From positions 62,001-126,000 of the forward strand of contig NZ_MWQI01000005.1 in assembly GCF_002210345.1 (NCBI RefSeq): DNA of 64,000 nucleotides, given 5' to 3'. Below the pieces are notes generated by a model. That model saw only the letters and a list, made by a program, of their open reading frames with translations, had not been told where the DNA came from and ran no database searches. Below are positions 8,953-18,970 of the stretch, piece by piece. Source of the DNA: Fibrobacter sp. UWB4. GTDB taxonomy: Bacteria; Fibrobacterota; Fibrobacteria; Fibrobacterales; Fibrobacteraceae. Each line of letters starts with the position of its first letter. Positions within the stretch are counted from its first letter, which is position 1. The position numbers and the translations under genes were made by a program.

Positions 8953-8965
8953 TTGCTGGAAGCGT

Positions 8966-9030
8966 CATCCTGAGCGAATGCATGATGCTCCGTCATCCTG
9001 AGGACTGTAAGGACGAAGGATCTAGTTAAA
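8966..9030. repeat. dispersed GTCATCCTGA-type intergenic repeat
   Basis: Two copies of GTCATCCTGA occur here (near 8966 and 8992), ending in GAAGGATCTAG. A related element lies inverted at 17171-17197 (GGATCC...TTCAGGATGAC). It resembles the small dispersed intergenic repeats common in bacterial genomes; no coding potential. Confidence 0.6.
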
Positions 9031-9044
9031 TTTAATAGTGAATG

Positions 9045-9075
9045 TCCCGCAGTTTAGAATGCTGCGGGATTTTTT
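9045..9075 (+). terminator. intrinsic terminator of bamA-skp
   Basis: Stem TCCCGCAG / CTGCGGGA with a 9-nt loop is followed by six T. It ends the rightward bamA-skp transcript, and its T-run touches the stop codon of the convergent recQ gene. Confidence 0.85.
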
Positions 9076-10936
9076 ATTGCCTCATGTAATCGCAGATGGC
9101 GTCTACGAATTGCTGCCCGAATTTTCGGATTTTCATTTCGCCAAAGCCGAATACGTCTTGCAGCTCGTTTATGGAAATGGGCGCCTTGTAGGCGAGGTCT
9201 TTTAACGTACGGTCAGAAAGTACGACGTAGGCGGGCCAGTTGTTTTCATCGGCGATTTGCCTGCGGACTTTTCGCAGAGCTTCGAATAGGGAATTGTCTT
9301 CGTCGGAGTCTGAAGAGCGCGCGTAGGTTGTGCGTGTACTGCCGGCAGAAGTGCGCGAAAATGCCGCGCGACTGAATGATGTGCGGCTGCTTCTCGGCTT
9401 TGCGTCTTCTTTGGCTTCTATTTTTGCGGCGATGGCTAATTCTGCCGTTTTCTTCCCGAAGAGGACTTCGTTACCGCTCTCGGTGATTTTAAGGTGGTTG
9501 TTCTCGTTGTACGCGATTTCGATGTAGCCGAGTTGCAGCATTTGCAAAAGGTAATCGTGCCAATGCTTTAGCGTTGTCTTGCTGCCGACACCGAAAGTCT
9601 TGAGCTTGTCGTAACCCTTCTGGACAATCTCGTCGCTGAGCGTTCCCTTGAGGATGTCGGCGGTCATTGAAAAGCCGATATGCTCGCCGGTACGTTTTAT
9701 GGCCGAGAGCGCCTTTTGCACGAGAATCGTGCCGTTGAAACGCTGTGGCGGGTGCTTGCAAATGTCGCAATTCCCGCAGTTGCTATTGTTGTTTTCGCCG
9801 AAGTAGTTGAGCAAAATGCGACGACGGCAAACCTGCGATTCGGCGTATTCCTGCATGCGGTCGAGCTTCTCGGAGTTGATGTCACGTTGGCCGCTTTCGT
9901 TTACAAATTTGCGGAGCGTGATGATATCCTGGAAATTGTAGAACAGCACCGTTTCGGAGGGGAGGCCGTCGCGGCCCGCGCGCCCAATCTCTTGATAAAA
10001 ACTCTCGATGCTCTTGGGGAGATTGTAATGGATAACGTAACGGACGTTGCTTTTGTCGATGCCCATGCCAAAAGCGATTGTCGCGCACACGACATCGACA
10101 TTGTCGTTGATGAAATCCTCTTGCACATTGTTGCGTTCTTCGGCGGTTAGCCCCGCATGGTAAGCTTTCGCGTAAACGCCAGCGTTGATGAGATCTTCGG
10201 CGACTTTCTCGGTGCTCTTGCGCGAAAGGCAATAGATGATTCCCGATTCGTGCTTGTGCTTTGAAATGATGGACAAAATGGCTTTCAGCTTTTCGGAAGC
10301 GGAATAACCGCGCCGCACATCGAGACTCAGATTCGGACGGTCGAACGAACTCACGAAAAGTCTAAAGTCGCGCAGGTTCAGCTGCCGGACAATATCTTCT
10401 TTTGTGAGCTTGTCTGCCGTTGCCGTCAGCGCCATAATTGTTGCGCTCGGGAACGCTTGGTGTAGCATGCCGAGCTGCGTGTATTCTGGACGGAAGTCGT
10501 GTCCCCATTGCGAAATGCAGTGCGCCTCGTCAATAGCGAACAGCGAAACGCTCAAGTGCTGTTGCATCCACGGAATTTCTCGCTGCAAACGCTCCGGCGA
10601 GATGTATAGAATCTTGGTTTGGCCCGCTTTACAACGCTGCCGGATGGCCGCGTTTTCACCTTCTTCGTTGTTGCTGTTCAGTGCATCTGCACCAATGCCA
10701 TTTGCATTCAGCGCATCCACCTGGTCTTTCATCAGTGAAATCAACGGCGAAATAACGACCGTGATGCCTTTGAACAGCAAGGCTGGAATCTGGTAGCAAA
10801 TGGACTTTCCGCCGCCAGTCGGCATCAGCACGAGCGCATCTTTCCGCGATACGACATGCTCGATGATTTCCTGTTGCATGGGGCGGAATGCATCGTAGCC
10901 AAAAACTGATTTTAAAATTTCGTGAGCGGTGGGCAT
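9074..10936 (-). CDS. recQ: RecQ family ATP-dependent DNA helicase
   Basis: 620 residues in full RecQ order: superfamily-2 helicase core with Walker A GGGKS (41-45) and DEAHCISQWGHDFRPEY; a RQC zinc-binding region with Cys at CRRRI...CGNCDIC; a low-complexity Ser/Arg stretch; a C-terminal HRDC domain. It unwinds 3'-5' in recombination and fork repair. Its ATG is only 15 nt after the stop of the DUF262-DUF1524 gene, with no clear ribosome site, so it is probably translated from the same message as the upstream accessory module. Its base composition matches the genome core, unlike those genes. Confidence 0.95.
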   Translation of the reverse strand: MPTAHEILKSVFGYDAFRPMQQEIIEHVVSRKDALVLMPTGGGKSICYQIPALLFKGITVVISPLISLMKDQVDALNANGIGADALNSNNEEGENAAIRQRCKAGQTKILYISPERLQREIPWMQQHLSVSLFAIDEAHCISQWGHDFRPEYTQLGMLHQAFPSATIMALTATADKLTKEDIVRQLNLRDFRLFVSSFDRPNLSLDVRRGYSASEKLKAILSIISKHKHESGIIYCLSRKSTEKVAEDLINAGVYAKAYHAGLTAEERNNVQEDFINDNVDVVCATIAFGMGIDKSNVRYVIHYNLPKSIESFYQEIGRAGRDGLPSETVLFYNFQDIITLRKFVNESGQRDINSEKLDRMQEYAESQVCRRRILLNYFGENNNSNCGNCDICKHPPQRFNGTILVQKALSAIKRTGEHIGFSMTADILKGTLSDEIVQKGYDKLKTFGVGSKTTLKHWHDYLLQMLQLGYIEIAYNENNHLKITESGNEVLFGKKTAELAIAAKIEAKEDAKPRSSRTSFSRAAFSRTSAGSTRTTYARSSDSDEDNSLFEALRKVRRQIADENNWPAYVVLSDRTLKDLAYKAPISINELQDVFGFGEMKIRKFGQQFVDAICDYMRQ

Positions 10937-10951
10937 TATTTTGAAATGGGT

Positions 10952-13003
10952 CTAAGAATTGTTTTCTACACGTAATACATTTTTCATTTTTTTATAATGG
11001 TCCTGAATTTCGTTTACTCCATTCTTGTCCATTAACAGTTTGCCTTCGTCCCATTCGGTATAAGCCATCATGATTCGTTGCTTGATACTGTCAAGATTTT
11101 CGCTTTGCTCATAATGTTCTTTTTTGGCGAGAGGCATATAATTGCTCAATCGAGAATTCTTTGAATTGCTGATTAGGCAAAGGTTGCCAAAGCAATCAAG
11201 ATTGTCTTTACTGATTTTGTAATCGTTACCTTCAATGGGGTTTTGCGGATAATAGTGTTCCACAGAACTTCTGAATGTGAATTCAAATGAGGCTATTCTT
11301 GAATCATTTCTTAATTTTTCATTGTCACCGATAACATCAAATGCTGATTTTGTGGTCCTGAAATTTTGCCAAAGCAAATAATCCAGATAGTTGAAAATGA
11401 AGTTTTCTACAGCTGTTCCTGCGTTTAATGCATCTATGTATAATTGATTATTGTCAATGTTTTGAACATTGCAGGAATTTTTATAAATAATTTCAAAGTA
11501 ATCTAGTGGTGATTTTGACAGGAAACGATCTCGTAAGAACGCTTCAGCCATCTTTTCCAAATATTCTTTGTAGGCTTGTGCTGTAATCGGTTCTGACTGT
11601 TCAAAACACCATTTTAAAGCGCCGTTTAGCCAGTGCTTATACACAAGAGTTGGCGTGGAAACGTGGAACATCGAAAGTAACATTATGATTTCGCGATTTT
11701 CTTCGCTTTCAATATCGGGATTTGATGTATCGCTAAATGTTCCGACATATGAATAAGAACGTTTTTTGTCTTCGGAATGAGCTCTTTTTTTGCTTTCGTA
11801 AATACGAACGCGCTTTAAGCTCCATCGATCGCTTCCACCGACAAATTCACGTTTGATAATGTACTTGTCGTAAAGGTATTTCATTTTCAGAAGGTTATAG
11901 CCGAACTCTTTGACAAACTGTTGATTTGCCTCAGGGTTGTCTGATTTTACGTAAGGCTTGAACAAATCGAGCAAACGCTTGTCGTCTAGAGGAATGTCTG
12001 TTTTTGTTTGAATGCGTAAAACATGAAGCAGAAAATTTGAGAAATTGATAACGGTGTTAAAACGGACGTTTGTATCTTCGTTATCTTCTTCTTTTACGCT
12101 GATATTGGCGTCATTTTTTGCAATGGCTTCGAGACTTTCTTCGCTTTCACTTTCTTCATTTGAGTTGTGAAGATTCTCGTAAACATGCTCAGGGTTGTTG
12201 TCTAGAACATCCCATAGGTTTCCGTCTTTTTCATTGCCTCCGAAAATAGCGTTGCGCTCGTTTTTAGAAAAGCCATATTGAATATAGCGTTCCATATTGG
12301 CCGCTGCTTCCCAAATTTTATTGAAGGCTACGCGGTCTTTCACATTGAGGCTTTTTAAACATTGAGCCTTGAGAACTTCGTGCTTTTCAAGCTGTTCTCC
12401 ACGGCTGTTCATGATTTCAAAATAATGGTTCAAGTCAGTATCGCGTGGAACTGGAACTCGTAAAATGTAGACTTGATTTGCTAAGTATTTAACAAAGTCC
12501 TTTTCTTTAAGATTCTTTTCTTTTAGAATTTGCGATAAGGCTTTTTCTGCATCACGATAACCTTGTATGATGTTCATGTTTGGGTTATCGTATGATTGCT
12601 TATCCAAATTAGAAAGAAGCTTTAGCGATTCTGTGGATCTTGGGCGACTTGCAAAAGACAATATATTCCCGCGGAACCAACCTAATTCATTATGGAACCA
12701 ATCTAAATCTTTATTTTTATTGTATAAGAGATTTAGAATGATGCTTAATGTGGTTAGTCTTTGCTGGCCGTCTATTGTTTCATAAATGGTTTCGTAATCG
12801 TCCTTACGTTCGTAAACAATTAGTGTTCCGATGTAATAATTGCAATTACTTTTATCTTTTGCATAGTCCGCAATGTCTAAAATTAGCTGACGGATTTGAG
12901 GCTCTGTCCAAGCATAGTCTCGTTGATAAATTGGAATCTCGTAACGGATTTTTTCTTCTTCAAAAAGGGTCTTGATTGACAATGGTGTGAGATTGTTAGC
13001 CAT
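10952..13003 (-). CDS. DUF262-DUF1524 protein (GmrSD/SspE/BrxU-like NTPase-nuclease)
   Basis: 683 residues. The N-terminal DUF262 ParB-like NTPase domain shows YQRDY (26-30), YIGTL (57-61) and DGQQRLTT (78-85). The C-terminal DUF1524 HNH-type region shows VEHYYPQ (His583) and FGNLCLI followed by the conserved Asn-rich run (about 604-620). The middle is helical, with an acidic stretch. In the known relatives GmrSD, BrxU and SspE these domains use nucleotide hydrolysis to cut modified or foreign DNA. Its ATG overlaps the end of the previous DUF262 gene by 8 nt, implying coupled translation. AT-rich compared with recQ. Role in defence is inferred; the target is unknown. Confidence 0.85.
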   Translation of the reverse strand: MANNLTPLSIKTLFEEEKIRYEIPIYQRDYAWTEPQIRQLILDIADYAKDKSNCNYYIGTLIVYERKDDYETIYETIDGQQRLTTLSIILNLLYNKNKDLDWFHNELGWFRGNILSFASRPRSTESLKLLSNLDKQSYDNPNMNIIQGYRDAEKALSQILKEKNLKEKDFVKYLANQVYILRVPVPRDTDLNHYFEIMNSRGEQLEKHEVLKAQCLKSLNVKDRVAFNKIWEAAANMERYIQYGFSKNERNAIFGGNEKDGNLWDVLDNNPEHVYENLHNSNEESESEESLEAIAKNDANISVKEEDNEDTNVRFNTVINFSNFLLHVLRIQTKTDIPLDDKRLLDLFKPYVKSDNPEANQQFVKEFGYNLLKMKYLYDKYIIKREFVGGSDRWSLKRVRIYESKKRAHSEDKKRSYSYVGTFSDTSNPDIESEENREIIMLLSMFHVSTPTLVYKHWLNGALKWCFEQSEPITAQAYKEYLEKMAEAFLRDRFLSKSPLDYFEIIYKNSCNVQNIDNNQLYIDALNAGTAVENFIFNYLDYLLWQNFRTTKSAFDVIGDNEKLRNDSRIASFEFTFRSSVEHYYPQNPIEGNDYKISKDNLDCFGNLCLISNSKNSRLSNYMPLAKKEHYEQSENLDSIKQRIMMAYTEWDEGKLLMDKNGVNEIQDHYKKMKNVLRVENNS

Positions 13004-14357
13004 TATAATAACCTAATGTTTTAAATTTCGCAATAATTTTTTCTTCTTTGGTTGCTTTGGTATCAGAAAGAGTGCCCAATTCTACATTTAAAATATCCTG
13101 TGGATTGTTTGCGTCTCGGATTATTTTAAACATCGCAATCTGTGAATGTCCCAAATTTAATGCGTAGTTGTCCATTGATTCAATGTCGACACTATGCAAC
13201 TTTAATCGTAGTGTATAAGCCCAAATAAACAGTTTCTCTACAATGCGATCGATGTTTTTTTGACCGAATTTATCGATATAGTCAATTAGGGCGCAATAGA
13301 ATAGATTGCGTACATAACGGTCTCCAGTCCTGTTATATCCATCATAATTATGTATAATGTTTAGAATTTCATGTGATCTGTTGCTTTCTATTTCTTCACG
13401 CATTTGGGCGTAATGGGATACATATTCGAAGAAACGTTTCCCATTGATGATTACCTGATCAATCTGAAATGGAAAATCGAATGATTCATGCAAAATTTTG
13501 GAATGGCAAGATGAATTGAATTCGTCAACGTAATAATGGGCGATTCGATAAAGTTTTGTGTATGGGAAGTCTTCTTCAAGATTTGGGCTGATGCCTTTGA
13601 ATGTGTCTACATCGTCTTTCGTAAAGTACCGCGCTGATAGATCGCGACCCCAGTTTTTGATGCGATAAAGGTATTGTGAGAATAAACTGGACAACTCGCT
13701 GGGTTCCATGTTTTCCCATTTCTTTACGGCATTTAATCGCTCTTGTTCCGTAGAGGAATTGTTCATTTCGCGTAAGTGATAGGCTTTCAACAAATCGTGC
13801 GGTTCCAAATCCTTGCCGCGAGCATTTTGAGAATCGAAAAACTGGAATGCTTCTGAAACGTCGTCAATTACAATTTTCACGAATTGGCATTGATTAAAGA
13901 AGAATTTTAAGAAATCTGCTTTTTCTAAATCAGATTTTCTACGTTCCATAGCCTTGAAATTCTTCTGGATATTTTGCTTAGTAATAACATTGGAAAACTT
14001 AAGCGTTGATTGGGGCTTGAAACTATTGATGGAATCGCCTCGTAAGAATACATGTCTTTGCAGGTCGTTGTTTTCTTCGATAAGAGGTAATATTTTGATA
14101 GCGAGAAGAAATAATGTTATTGTTCTTTGCTGTCCATCGACAATATCAAGTTTTCCTTCTTCCTTGTTATTGTGGATGACGAGTGTTCCGATGCGGTAGG
14201 CGGATTTGTCAAGGTTATCGCGAATGTCGTCAATAAGCTGATTGACATTTTTTTCCGTCCATTTGTACGGACGCTGGTATTCAGGAATCCGCAAATTTGG
14301 AATGGCTAGTAATTGCTTGACTGAAATAATTTCTGGTTTTAAAATAGTTTCACTCAT
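12996..14357 (-). CDS. DUF262 protein without a nuclease domain
   Basis: 453 residues. DUF262 NTPase motifs are present: YQRPY (27-31), IGTL (56-59) and DGQQRTITL (74-82), then a helical C-terminal half. I find no DUF1524 His-Asn nuclease motif, so this looks like a GmrS-like NTPase or sensor subunit that would need a partner. It sits between the Mrr-type nuclease gene (18 nt upstream) and the DUF262-DUF1524 gene (8-nt overlap). It may form a hetero-oligomer with the latter (inference). It could instead be a regulator with a dead domain, but the intact GQQR motif argues against that. Confidence 0.8.
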   Translation of the reverse strand: MSETILKPEIISVKQLLAIPNLRIPEYQRPYKWTEKNVNQLIDDIRDNLDKSAYRIGTLVIHNNKEEGKLDIVDGQQRTITLFLLAIKILPLIEENNDLQRHVFLRGDSINSFKPQSTLKFSNVITKQNIQKNFKAMERRKSDLEKADFLKFFFNQCQFVKIVIDDVSEAFQFFDSQNARGKDLEPHDLLKAYHLREMNNSSTEQERLNAVKKWENMEPSELSSLFSQYLYRIKNWGRDLSARYFTKDDVDTFKGISPNLEEDFPYTKLYRIAHYYVDEFNSSCHSKILHESFDFPFQIDQVIINGKRFFEYVSHYAQMREEIESNRSHEILNIIHNYDGYNRTGDRYVRNLFYCALIDYIDKFGQKNIDRIVEKLFIWAYTLRLKLHSVDIESMDNYALNLGHSQIAMFKIIRDANNPQDILNVELGTLSDTKATKEEKIIAKFKTLGYYNG

Positions 14358-14375
14358 CGGGCGCCTGTATAAAAA

Positions 14376-15632
14376 TCAGTTTTTCGTGTATTTACCGTCT
14401 TCGGTTCTTTGAATTTTTTCAAGATTCCATAGCCAAAGCAGGCGGAAAGAGGCTTGTGCGTTTGTTGTCCAGCCGACATTGTAGTTGTCAACGAAATAGT
14501 TAGATAAGTCTTTGTCTGAAATCGGTTCGCTAGAGTTTTCTATTAAGGACATGGCTTCTTCAATACCGAAAATTCGGTCTTTCATAATTTCAAAAACTTT
14601 TGCCTTAGATGGTGCTTTGAGTAATTCTTCTGCGGTACTTGTTAATTTGAATGATTTGTTTACTAGCTGAGCTAATCCAAGGTTGGCAAAAATATTTCTC
14701 ATGTAGCTCGTTATGGTTTTATCACTGTTTACATTTTCAAAATGGTTTTTAAACCATTTTATTAGAGCTTCCTTTGATAAAGGTTTGTCCTTTAATGCGT
14801 TTAGGATGTCTAATAATGATTCGTAATAATGGTCTATTCCACCAGGCAGAGGCCAAATAGCTTTCTTTTTGGCCGTTTCTATTTGTGTGTCGCCGCTTTC
14901 GAGATTATCAAAATAGTCTTCATCGATAGAAATCAATTCCGTTGTTTTTGTTTTTATGCCGATATGGTATTTGATTAAAAGATCTAGAAGCATTTCTCCA
15001 TTAACAAGAGATATAGGTACTTTGTTTTTTGCTGCGGCTTCTTCTTTTGCGGCCTTTGTGAAATCTGCTGTTGTAATGATTAATCCTCGTTGGTCTGTTT
15101 CTGCTGCTCCACGTAATTCTCTTACTACGCTATCACTAACATTGTTGGCGTAACGTTTTACTTGAACCGCTGTTTTTACATTTGTAAAACCGTAGACTGT
15201 TAGAACCGCTTTGACATCAATGCCCCCGTCTCCGGAGCGTTTTGTGACTTCGACATTTTCGTAGCCGAGTTTTTCAAGTAAATCACCAATCAGATGTTCA
15301 AAAATGAACGGATCTATATTAAGTAGGCGCTCTTGTAGTGCGCCAATTTGAGCTCTGTTATACTCTTGAATAATTTGCTCTGGGGCTTTTTCTTTATTTG
15401 ATGATGTAGCCGCAGTGAAAATGCCTTTGCCTACTTTAACGAAAGGAGATTTGTCTCCATTTTTCTTTATATCTGTATAGATTTGGGCTCCCATTGTTGC
15501 TTCTGGTGTTTCACCAGATGTCTTAATGAGGTTTTGTTCTGTTGCCGCCTTGTAAATTTCAGAGACAGACATTGGATGTCTTGTTTCTTGGAGAATCTTG
15601 AGTGCTGCAGATTTGAAGGAAAGTAATGGCAT
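14376..15632 (-). CDS. HARE-HTH / Mrr-type restriction endonuclease
   Basis: 418 residues. The N-terminal winged-helix domain (1-75) matches the HARE-HTH type, found fused to restriction nucleases and chromatin proteins and predicted to sense modified DNA. Residues about 105-225 form a PD-(D/E)XK nuclease of the Mrr_cat type with GDGGIDV (Asp139) and QVK (Gln157, Lys159). The C-terminal 180 residues look like two further winged-helix segments. It is the first gene of the module; an AGAGA stretch before the ATG may be the ribosome site. Expected role: cutting of modified invading DNA together with the two DUF262 proteins (inference). Confidence 0.85.
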   Translation of the reverse strand: MPLLSFKSAALKILQETRHPMSVSEIYKAATEQNLIKTSGETPEATMGAQIYTDIKKNGDKSPFVKVGKGIFTAATSSNKEKAPEQIIQEYNRAQIGALQERLLNIDPFIFEHLIGDLLEKLGYENVEVTKRSGDGGIDVKAVLTVYGFTNVKTAVQVKRYANNVSDSVVRELRGAAETDQRGLIITTADFTKAAKEEAAAKNKVPISLVNGEMLLDLLIKYHIGIKTKTTELISIDEDYFDNLESGDTQIETAKKKAIWPLPGGIDHYYESLLDILNALKDKPLSKEALIKWFKNHFENVNSDKTITSYMRNIFANLGLAQLVNKSFKLTSTAEELLKAPSKAKVFEIMKDRIFGIEEAMSLIENSSEPISDKDLSNYFVDNYNVGWTTNAQASFRLLWLWNLEKIQRTEDGKYTKN

Positions 15633-15707
15633 ATTTTTCTCTGCTTGATATTTTTTTTCAAATATACATCATGTTGCTGTCATAAAATTTCAAAAATCAA
15701 AAAATCT

Positions 15708-15785
15708 TTACAGCCCCAGTACCTTTCTCCTTTTCGAAATCTGTTTTCCGAGTTTTTCCATAATAATAGCTCCAATATCAACCAT
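15708..15785 (-). pseudogene. remnant of an XRE/HipB-type regulator gene
   Basis: A GGAG site is followed 8 nt later by ATG (15759-15761) and the short frame MEKLGKQISKRRKVLGL, then TAA at 15708-15710. This matches the usual beginning of XRE-family helix-turn-helix proteins, where a TQ-containing recognition region would follow. The frame is open upstream to an in-frame ATG at 15785. The rest of the gene is absent. It lies just upstream of the Mrr-type gene on the same strand and may be what is left of a regulator or antitoxin. It is too short for a firm call. Confidence 0.4.
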
Positions 15786-15903
15786 TAATTCAATACGAAA
15801 TACATTGAAATCTGCAATGTCTACTAAGACTTCTCAATATTCGATACTTAGAGGGGACGTTTTTTGGGGGGGGCATGGAGAATCAAAAGCTCTTTTTCGC
15901 TAT

Positions 15904-15933
15904 ATTGGGTAGTGATTGGGTAGGATTGGGTAG
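15904..15933 (+). repeat. three ATTGGGTAG direct repeats
   Basis: ATTGGGTAG occurs at 15904-15912, 15915-15923 and 15925-15933 (steps of 11 and 10 bp, about one helical turn), 60 bp before the acetyltransferase start. A run of eight G lies at 15866-15873. The rest of the gap 15786-15992 holds no gene. The helical phasing suggests a possible regulator site. Confidence 0.45.
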
Positions 15934-15992
15934 TTTCTTGATCCTCAAAATCAGTTTTAAATTTTTGCTTATATTTGTTAATAGAGGTCCCT

Positions 15993-17275: not shown

Positions 17276-18970
17276 ATGGCCGAACAAAACAAAGCAGAAA
17301 AATTCGTTTTCTACATGTACAAAATGACCAAGTCCTATCCACCTAACAAAGAGGTGCTGAAGGACATTTCTTTGAGCTTCTACTATGGCGCAAAGATTGG
17401 TATTATCGGCCAGAACGGTGCCGGTAAGTCAACGCTTCTCCGCATCATGGCGGGTATCGACAAGGAATTCCAAGGCGAAGCTTGGATTGAACCGGGCCGC
17501 ACCGCAGGTTACTTGCCGCAGGAACCGCAGCTTGACCCGAACTTGACCGTCAAGGAAAACGTGATGCAGGCTGTTGCTAAAAAGCAGGCCGTGCTCGACC
17601 GCTTCAACGAAATTTCCATGAAGTTTGCTGAACCGATGGAAGACGACGAGATGAACAAGCTCCTCGACGAACAGGCTAAGCTTCAGGACATTATCGACGC
17701 TCAGGATTTGTGGAGCCTCGATCGCAATATTGAAATTGCAATGGATGCTCTCCGTTGCCCGCCGGGTGATTGGCCGGTGACGAACCTTTCCGGTGGTGAA
17801 AAGCGCCGCGTGGCTCTCTGCCGCTTGCTCCTCGAAGAACCGGATTTGTTGCTCCTTGACGAACCGACGAACCACTTGGATGCCGAAACGGTTGCATGGC
17901 TCGAACGCCACCTCCGCGAATACAAGGGTTCCGTGATTCTCGTGACGCATGACCGTTACTTCCTTGACAACGTAACGAACTGGATTTTGGAAATTGACCG
18001 CGGTCGCGGCATTCCTTGGGAAGGCAATTACGCCCAGTGGCTGGACCAGAAGCTTGAACGCATGAAGAACGAAGAAAAGGGTGAATCTGACCGTCAGAAG
18101 CGCCTCGCTCGTGAACAGGAATGGGTCAAGCAGAGTCCGAAGGCTCGCCAGGCAAAGAGCAAGGCTCGTCTCAAGGCTTACGAAGAACTCTTGGCCGAAG
18201 ATTCCAAGGAACAGATCAAGGTGGCTCAAATCCACATTGCAAACGGCAAGCGCTTGGGCGATGTCGTCATTCAGGCGGAACATTTGCAGAAGGCCTTTGG
18301 CGAAAAGGTGCTGTTCGACGATTTGAACTTCAGCTTGCCGCGTTCGGGCATCGTGGGCATTATCGGTCCGAACGGTGCTGGTAAGACAACTTTGTTCAAG
18401 ATGATTATGGGCCAGGAAAAGCCCGATGGCGGTACGCTCAAGATTGGCGAAACTGTCGAAATCATCAGCATGGAACAGGGCCGCGAAAGTTTGGACGATT
18501 CCAAGACGGTTTGTGAATCCATCACGGGTGGCAATGATGAAATCTTGGTGGGCGACCGCAAGATGAACGGACGCGCTTACTGCGGTCTCTTCAACTTCAC
18601 GGGTGCCGCCCAGCAGAAAAAGCTCTCGCAGCTCTCCGGTGGTGAACGTAACCGTGTGCTTATGGCAAAGAACTTGCAGAAGCCGGGCAACCTCTTGTTC
18701 CTAGACGAACCGACGAACGACTTGGATATCGAAACATTGCAGGCTTTGGAACAGGCTATCCTCAAGTTCGCAGGCTGCGCCGTGATCATCTCGCATGACC
18801 GCTGGTTCCTCGACCGTATCGCCACGCACATCCTCGCTTACGAAGGTGATTCGAAGGTCGTGTGGTTCGAAGGCAACTGGAGCGAATACGAAGCTGATCG
18901 TCGCAAGCGCCTCGGCGAAGACGCTGACAATCCGAAGCCGATCAAGTACAAGACACTCAAGCGTGACTAA
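17276..18970 (+). CDS. ettA: EttA, ABC-F translational throttle ATPase
   Basis: 564 residues with two ABC ATPase domains: Walker A GQNGAGKST and GPNGAGKTT, two LSGGE signatures, and the Arm and inter-domain P-site tRNA-interaction linker typical of EttA. ABC-F EttA binds the ribosomal E site and gates entry into elongation according to ATP/ADP. No membrane domain is present, as expected. It is monocistronic, ends at a strong terminator, and its wording is close to the proteobacterial EttA family throughout, so the assignment is firm. The ribosome site is weak (GAAAAGAG). Confidence 0.95.
   Translation: MAEQNKAEKFVFYMYKMTKSYPPNKEVLKDISLSFYYGAKIGIIGQNGAGKSTLLRIMAGIDKEFQGEAWIEPGRTAGYLPQEPQLDPNLTVKENVMQAVAKKQAVLDRFNEISMKFAEPMEDDEMNKLLDEQAKLQDIIDAQDLWSLDRNIEIAMDALRCPPGDWPVTNLSGGEKRRVALCRLLLEEPDLLLLDEPTNHLDAETVAWLERHLREYKGSVILVTHDRYFLDNVTNWILEIDRGRGIPWEGNYAQWLDQKLERMKNEEKGESDRQKRLAREQEWVKQSPKARQAKSKARLKAYEELLAEDSKEQIKVAQIHIANGKRLGDVVIQAEHLQKAFGEKVLFDDLNFSLPRSGIVGIIGPNGAGKTTLFKMIMGQEKPDGGTLKIGETVEIISMEQGRESLDDSKTVCESITGGNDEILVGDRKMNGRAYCGLFNFTGAAQQKKLSQLSGGERNRVLMAKNLQKPGNLLFLDEPTNDLDIETLQALEQAILKFAGCAVIISHDRWFLDRIATHILAYEGDSKVVWFEGNWSEYEADRRKRLGEDADNPKPIKYKTLKRD

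What the first reader, a model, noticed from the sequence alone, without database searches (positions are those of the whole stretch)
10952..15632. Three-gene AT-rich module: HARE-HTH/Mrr nuclease + DUF262 protein + DUF262-DUF1524 protein
Seen: one strand, spacing 18 nt and an 8-nt overlap, AT-rich against its neighbours, Mrr nuclease residues Asp139/Gln157/Lys159, two DUF262 proteins each with intact GQQR motifs, HNH motif only in the second. Known: HARE-HTH is predicted to recognise modified DNA, and DUF262/DUF1524 proteins (GmrSD, BrxU, SspE) restrict modified DNA. Inference: a composite modification-dependent restriction system with two different nucleases and two paired NTPases. I am not aware of a named system with this set.
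Basis: partly seen in the sequence, partly recalled or inferred. Interest (0 to 1): 0.72.

Follow-up and report, generated by a model that had tools for sequence, protein, structure and literature searches.

The report
TgvAB restriction pair with Mrr nuclease
This is a copy of a recently described two-protein bacterial defence that destroys chemically modified phage DNA (TgvAB), with a second, optional DNA-cutting enzyme placed in front of it, at a chromosomal site where related bacteria swap such defences in and out; the pair itself is known, the combination is rare.

Summary
The three genes are as described (intact, one strand, 18-nt gap, 8-nt overlap, 37% GC). The two DUF262 genes match the published two-protein restriction system TgvAB (V. 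cholerae VPI-2, 2024): DUF262-only partner first, DUF262-DUF1524 nuclease second, all motifs intact. In 67 of 70 homologous loci from many phyla the pair stays together, and the two proteins co-diverge (r = 0.96). The HARE-HTH/Mrr gene is an add-on. It precedes the pair in 2 of 70 loci, both in this genus. A sister genome has the same pair at the same site without it and keeps the last ~20 nt of its reading frame, so it was deleted while tgvAB stayed intact. Yet the only two full-length HARE-Mrr genes in 168 genomes of the phylum both sit directly 5' of TgvAB pairs that are only 34% identical, so the link is recurrent. The site (ompH | recQ ... | ABC-F) is empty in some relatives and holds TgvAB, single-chain GmrSD or McrBC in others: a type IV restriction hot spot. 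Best reading: two modification-dependent restriction enzymes stacked in one operon; an obligate three-gene system is not supported.

The parts
14376..15632 (-). HARE-HTH + Mrr-type PD-(D/E)XK nuclease, 418 aa; C-terminal 170 aa without Pfam match
   Evidence: Pfam; E112/D139/Q157/K159; 73% homologue in G068 under purifying selection
12996..14357 (-). TgvA-type protein, DUF262 (GmrSD_N) + DUF7834, 453 aa, no nuclease domain found
   Evidence: Pfam; QR (28-29), DGQQR (74-78), FxxxN (174-178) invariant in 22 homologues; AlphaFold model pLDDT 89, fold like SspE/DndI
10952..13003 (-). TgvB-type protein, DUF262 + DUF1524 His-Me nuclease, 683 aa
   Evidence: Pfam; QR (27-28), DGQQR (78-82), FxxxN (195-199), H583/N607/N616 invariant in 21 homologues
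9074..10936 (-). recQ helicase, 15 nt downstream on the same strand; frequent neighbour of the swapped systems at this site
   Evidence: Pfam DEAD, Helicase_C, RecQ_Zn_bind, RQC, HRDC
15633..15974 (.). upstream region; a block of about 75 bp (15652-15726) is kept in sister G044, where it lies upstream of tgvA
8953..15974 (.). variable segment (hot spot) between ompH (ends 8952) and the hexapeptide transferase (starts 15975)/ABC-F (17276-18970)

Best explanation
The locus carries two modification-dependent (type IV) DNA restriction activities stacked in one operon. The core is a TgvAB-type pair. TgvA and TgvB use their DUF262 NTPase domains to sense modified (in the described system, sugar-modified hydroxymethyl-) cytosine in invading DNA, and NTP turnover licenses the His-Me nuclease of TgvB to cut; both proteins are needed. 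The upstream HARE-HTH/Mrr protein is most likely a self-contained type IV nuclease: the HARE-HTH domain reads a modified base and the Mrr domain cuts. It was added in front of tgvA so that it shares the promoter and widens the range of modifications attacked, and it can be lost without loss of TgvAB. Shown here: anatomy, intact motifs, conservation and co-divergence of the pair, optional status of HARE-Mrr, the hot spot. Inferred: substrates, cutting, shared transcription, antiphage function.
For: Domain architecture, gene order and motifs equal those published for TgvAB. 67 of 70 TgvA-like loci have TgvB next to it, often overlapping by a few nt. TgvA and TgvB distance matrices correlate at r = 0.96, 0 of 5000 permutations. 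Relatives are embedded in type I RM operons, as TgvAB is: upstream Methylase_S in 8 of 36, HsdR-type genes downstream, and E. coli copies lie beside type I subunit R. At the same site relatives carry other type IV systems: single-chain GmrSD and McrBC. HARE-Mrr is absent from sister G044 at the same site, with the last ~20 nt of its ORF left as a scar. HARE-Mrr of G000 and G068 differ with pN 0.17 against pS 0.80, so it is under purifying selection.
Against: No activity, substrate or expression data exist for this organism. VC1767/VC1766 themselves were not in the collections, so assignment to TgvAB rests on architecture, order and motifs plus relatives, not on direct alignment. The two full-length HARE-Mrr genes both sit directly 5' of a TgvAB pair, which is more than expected for an unrelated passenger.
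Confidence: 0.75

Rival explanations
1. An integrated three-component system in which HARE-Mrr is a functional accessory of TgvAB, such as an extra modification reader or second-strand cutter, kept in some lineages and dropped in others.
For: In 168 genomes of the phylum only two full-length HARE-Mrr genes exist and both lie directly 5' of tgvA in the same orientation (18-nt gap and 4-nt overlap), although the two TgvAB pairs are only 34% and 33% identical. The gene is under purifying selection.
Against: Absent at 68 of 70 homologous pairs. Deleted in G044 with tgvAB intact, dN/dS about 0.03 to 0.09. Its divergence does not track that of the pair. HARE/Mrr-type nucleases occur elsewhere beside type I RM genes without TgvAB.
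Confidence: 0.18
2. A four-gene unit including recQ, in which RecQ unwinds the cut DNA.
For: recQ lies 15 nt downstream on the same strand here and in G044, and overlaps tgvB by 1 nt in G076. At the same site recQ also follows GmrSD and McrBC, and elsewhere in the genus it follows Wadjet-like and type I RM genes.
Against: TgvAB at the same site in G052 and McrBC in G072 have no recQ next to them. recQ has a different base composition (0.50 against 0.37 GC). Other recQ copies lie beside thioredoxin or GGDEF genes.
Confidence: 0.05
3. A decayed or non-functional island remnant.
For: Low GC, patchy distribution and deletion in the sister strain.
Against: All three ORFs are intact with catalytic motifs. 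dN/dS of tgvA and tgvB between G000 and G044 is about 0.03 and 0.09, and pN is much smaller than pS for HARE-Mrr.
Confidence: 0.02

Closest known systems
[quoted passage not shown] cholerae VPI-2; PMC11411939)
   Same: Two genes, DUF262-only partner first, DUF262-DUF1524 nuclease second; QR, DGQQR, FxxxN and H...N...N motifs; relatives of the window pair lie inside type I RM operons.
   Different: The window copy is not inside a type I RM operon; it has a HARE-Mrr gene upstream and recQ downstream. Direct alignment with VC1767/VC1766 was not possible.
GrwAB (V. cholerae WASA VSP-II; PMC12137116)
   Same: Two DUF262 proteins, one with DUF1524, both required.
   Different: GrwA (nuclease) comes first and GrwB has a long multi-domain C-terminus; the window has the opposite order and a 453-aa partner with DUF7834.
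Single-chain GmrSD / BrxU / SspE / DndI
   Same: DUF262 NTPase controlling a DUF1524 His-Me nuclease; the P0002 model and the profiles match SspE and DndI.
   Different: Here a second DUF262 protein without nuclease is always paired.
HARE-HTH/REase fusions noted beside Dnd and BREX loci (PMC10853773, PMC12839542); PADLOC PDC-S02
   Same: HARE-HTH fused to a PD-(D/E)XK nuclease in defence loci; PDC-S02 match 2.1e-51 over residues 75-247.
   Different: Placed upstream of TgvAB, which I did not find described; extra 170-aa C-terminal region.

Membership tests
TgvAB | Adjacent pair: DUF262 without nuclease, then DUF262 + DUF1524 | tested here: met
   same order in 67 of 70 homologous loci
[quoted passage not shown]
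TgvAB | H...N...N His-Me motif in the second protein | tested here: met
   H583, N607, N616 invariant, (published TgvB H571, N602)
TgvAB | Sequence homology to VC1767/VC1766 | not testable with these tools
   V. cholerae sequences not returned by any collection; only relatives with the same layout
TgvAB | Embedded in a type I RM operon (source of the name) | tested here: not met
   No HSDR_N match on contig C5; met in many relatives, and the paper itself reports most tgvAB homologues outside the five-gene cluster, so it does not define the protein pair
TgvAB | Both proteins needed; acts on phages with sugar-modified cytosine | not testable with these tools
   needs experiment
GrwAB | Nuclease gene first, partner with long multi-domain C-terminus | tested here: not met
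   order and length
Single-chain GmrSD | One protein suffices, no partner gene | tested here: not met
   partner conserved in 67 of 70 loci
HARE-HTH Mrr-type type IV nuclease | HARE-HTH domain joined to Mrr_cat with intact D...QxK | tested here: met
HARE-HTH Mrr-type type IV nuclease | Cuts only modified DNA | not testable with these tools
   needs experiment
   2 of 70 loci, both in one genus; deletion in G044

The most novel reading that the evidence does not exclude
HARE-Mrr is a dedicated, optional third component of some TgvAB systems. It was recruited twice beside very different pairs in this genus because it adds a second modification reader or second cut to the TgvAB reaction.
Probability: 0.18. 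Interest if true: 0.55.

Novelty: new member of a known kind. Interest (0 to 1): 0.33.

Why it matters
It places a TgvAB-type pair outside its described type I RM setting and shows that the pair is a mobile unit. The natural with/without-HARE-Mrr strains (G000 and G044) offer a ready test of whether the second nuclease widens the range. The ompH | ABC-F site, where TgvAB, single-chain GmrSD and McrBC replace one another in close relatives, supports shared function by position and may be useful for finding further type IV systems.

Tried and rejected
Considered a conserved three-gene system: rejected, 2 of 70 loci and a deletion scar in G044. Considered GrwAB and single-chain GmrSD: rejected on order and partner. 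Considered recQ as an obligate part: weak, absent from the site in G052 and G072. AlphaFold of the HARE-Mrr protein from one sequence gave pLDDT 41, unusable for naming the C-terminal domain; its weak C-terminal helix-helix-strand-strand pattern only hints at a winged helix. No PDB relative of HARE-Mrr by sequence. Phage and plasmid records gave only partial Mrr matches. Direct comparison with VC1767/1766 was not possible. Promoter and terminator scans of the region were no better than shuffles. First plain ORF calls took antisense shadows of bamA, ompH and paaK for genes in some loci; corrected.

Full report
Observation. The stretch is 36-37% GC inside a 47-51% GC neighbourhood. Pfam gives HARE-HTH + Mrr_cat for the first protein, GmrSD_N (DUF262) + DUF7834 for the second, and GmrSD_N + GmrSD_C (DUF1524) for the third. 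The Mrr residues E112, D139, Q157 and K159 are present. Across 22 homologues the DUF262 motifs QR, DGQQR and FxxxN of the second protein are invariant; across 21 homologues those of the third protein and its H583, N607 and N616 are invariant. A recQ gene follows 15 nt downstream on the same strand.

What the pair is. A published two-protein system, TgvAB of V. cholerae VPI-2, has the same layout: TgvA with DUF262 only, then TgvB with DUF262 and DUF1524. Both are needed, DGQQR and His-Me mutants are dead, and protection is against T-even phages with sugar-modified cytosine (PMC11411939). T2 mutants that lost glucosylation escape (PMC12409362). The other published pair, GrwAB, has the nuclease gene first and a long partner (PMC12137116). 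The window pair has the TgvAB order and a short partner. I could not align it with VC1767/VC1766 because they were not in the collections.

How widespread the pair is. tblastn of the second protein finds 1,042 plasmid records, 876 with near full-length matches, mostly Klebsiella. Eighty loci were kept from 433 confirmed relatives in genome contigs. Among 70 loci with a TgvA-like gene, 67 have TgvB directly downstream. TgvA and TgvB distances correlate at r = 0.96 over 21 loci, with 0 of 5000 permutations reaching it. Their neighbours are often type I RM genes: Methylase_S upstream in 8 of 36 loci, HsdR-type genes downstream; E. coli copies sit beside type I subunit R. The window's own contig has no HsdR N-terminal match, so here the pair stands outside a type I operon.

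The HARE-Mrr gene. Within 80 genomes of the genus only G000 (the window) and G068 hold a full-length homologue, 73% identical; in 168 genomes of the phylum these are again the only two. In both it lies directly 5' of tgvA in the same orientation. In G068 a type I HsdR gene precedes it. The two TgvAB pairs are only 34% and 33% identical, and the G068 pair groups with those of G076 and G052. So HARE-Mrr and the pairs have not descended together as one unit. The first-stage claim of a conserved composite fails: HARE-Mrr is present at 2 of 70 pairs.

A natural deletion. Sister genome G044 has the same site and a pair 95% identical in DNA, but no HARE-Mrr. Its sequence just before tgvA reads AATACACGAAAAACTGATTTTTATACAGGCGCCCG, which is the end of the HARE-Mrr frame plus the intergenic 18 nt of the window. 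The simplest reading is a deletion across a short AAATA match, leaving tgvAB downstream of the same upstream block. Between G000 and G044 tgvA and tgvB are under purifying selection (dN/dS about 0.03 and 0.09). HARE-Mrr itself is under purifying selection between G000 and G068 (pN 0.17, pS 0.80). It is therefore optional but not decayed.

The site. In relatives bamA-ompH and the ABC-F gene adjoin directly or nearly so (for example G026, G028, G033, G039). In the close clade of 18 genomes (bamA at least 91% identical) the insert between them holds TgvAB in G000, G044, G076 and G052; a DUF262 gene of the single-chain kind in G001 and G046; McrBC in G067, G062, G050, G013 and G072; and only HipA-type or unassigned genes, or a contig end, in others. 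The match for G046 covers the DUF262 domain only, and the G050 McrB-like gene is in two pieces. Eleven of 18 thus carry a type IV restriction system at one position, which supports the same function for the window genes by replacement. Synonymous divergence between G000 and G044 is lower for tgvA (0.16) and recQ (0.23) than for bamA (0.65), consistent with recent exchange of this segment.

Structure. A model of the second protein from 29 sequences is confident (pLDDT 89); its best solved matches are SspE and DndI, with BrxU weaker. The helical DUF7834 part has no clear separate match. The HARE-Mrr model is too poor to use.

Mechanism. Most likely TgvA and TgvB act together: DUF262 domains sense modified cytosine and use NTP, and the His-Me domain of TgvB cuts. 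The HARE-Mrr protein probably acts on its own as a second modification-dependent nuclease. HARE-HTH/REase fusions are proposed to discriminate modified DNA (PMC10853773), and the likely ligand of HARE-HTH is debated between adenine and cytosine marks (PMC11037411). The steps from sensing to cutting are inferred from these families; none was measured here.

Verdict. A TgvAB-type pair, already known in kind, with an optional HARE-Mrr nuclease stacked in front. The combination was not found in the searched literature, which excludes most subscription papers. The recurrence beside two different pairs keeps an accessory role for HARE-Mrr possible.

Noticed in passing
window 8953-15974 and loci L061, L062, L068, L071, L161-L166, L182-L189: Hot spot between ompH and ABC-F in this genus: empty in some genomes, otherwise filled with TgvAB, single-chain GmrSD-type, McrBC or HipA-type genes.
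   Followed up: partly
window 9074-10936; loci L167, L173-L175, L177: recQ recurs as the 3' neighbour of different defence genes in this genus: type IV systems here, HsdR + YgjP-like protease, Wadjet-like SMC/JetD, and YhcG nuclease with HipA elsewhere.
   Followed up: partly
G000:C14:7705 (L003) and G000:C7:112403 (L004): Two further DUF262 proteins (about 750 and 710 aa frames) in the same genome, unlike the window pair.
   Followed up: no
L035 (Aliarcobacter plasmid pACIB) 7681-16350: TgvAB pair flanked by a 775-aa PD-(D/E)XK nuclease gene and a UvrD-helicase gene with short overlaps: another nuclease-TgvAB combination.
   Followed up: no
L210 7965-9059 (viral contig): A double HARE-HTH Mrr nuclease between a type I HsdR-like gene with a metallopeptidase-like gene and a large helicase.
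   Followed up: no
L038 (Picosynechococcus plasmid) 11391-14126: A TgvB-like gene split by an IS1 transposase gene between the DUF262 part and the HNH part.
   Followed up: no
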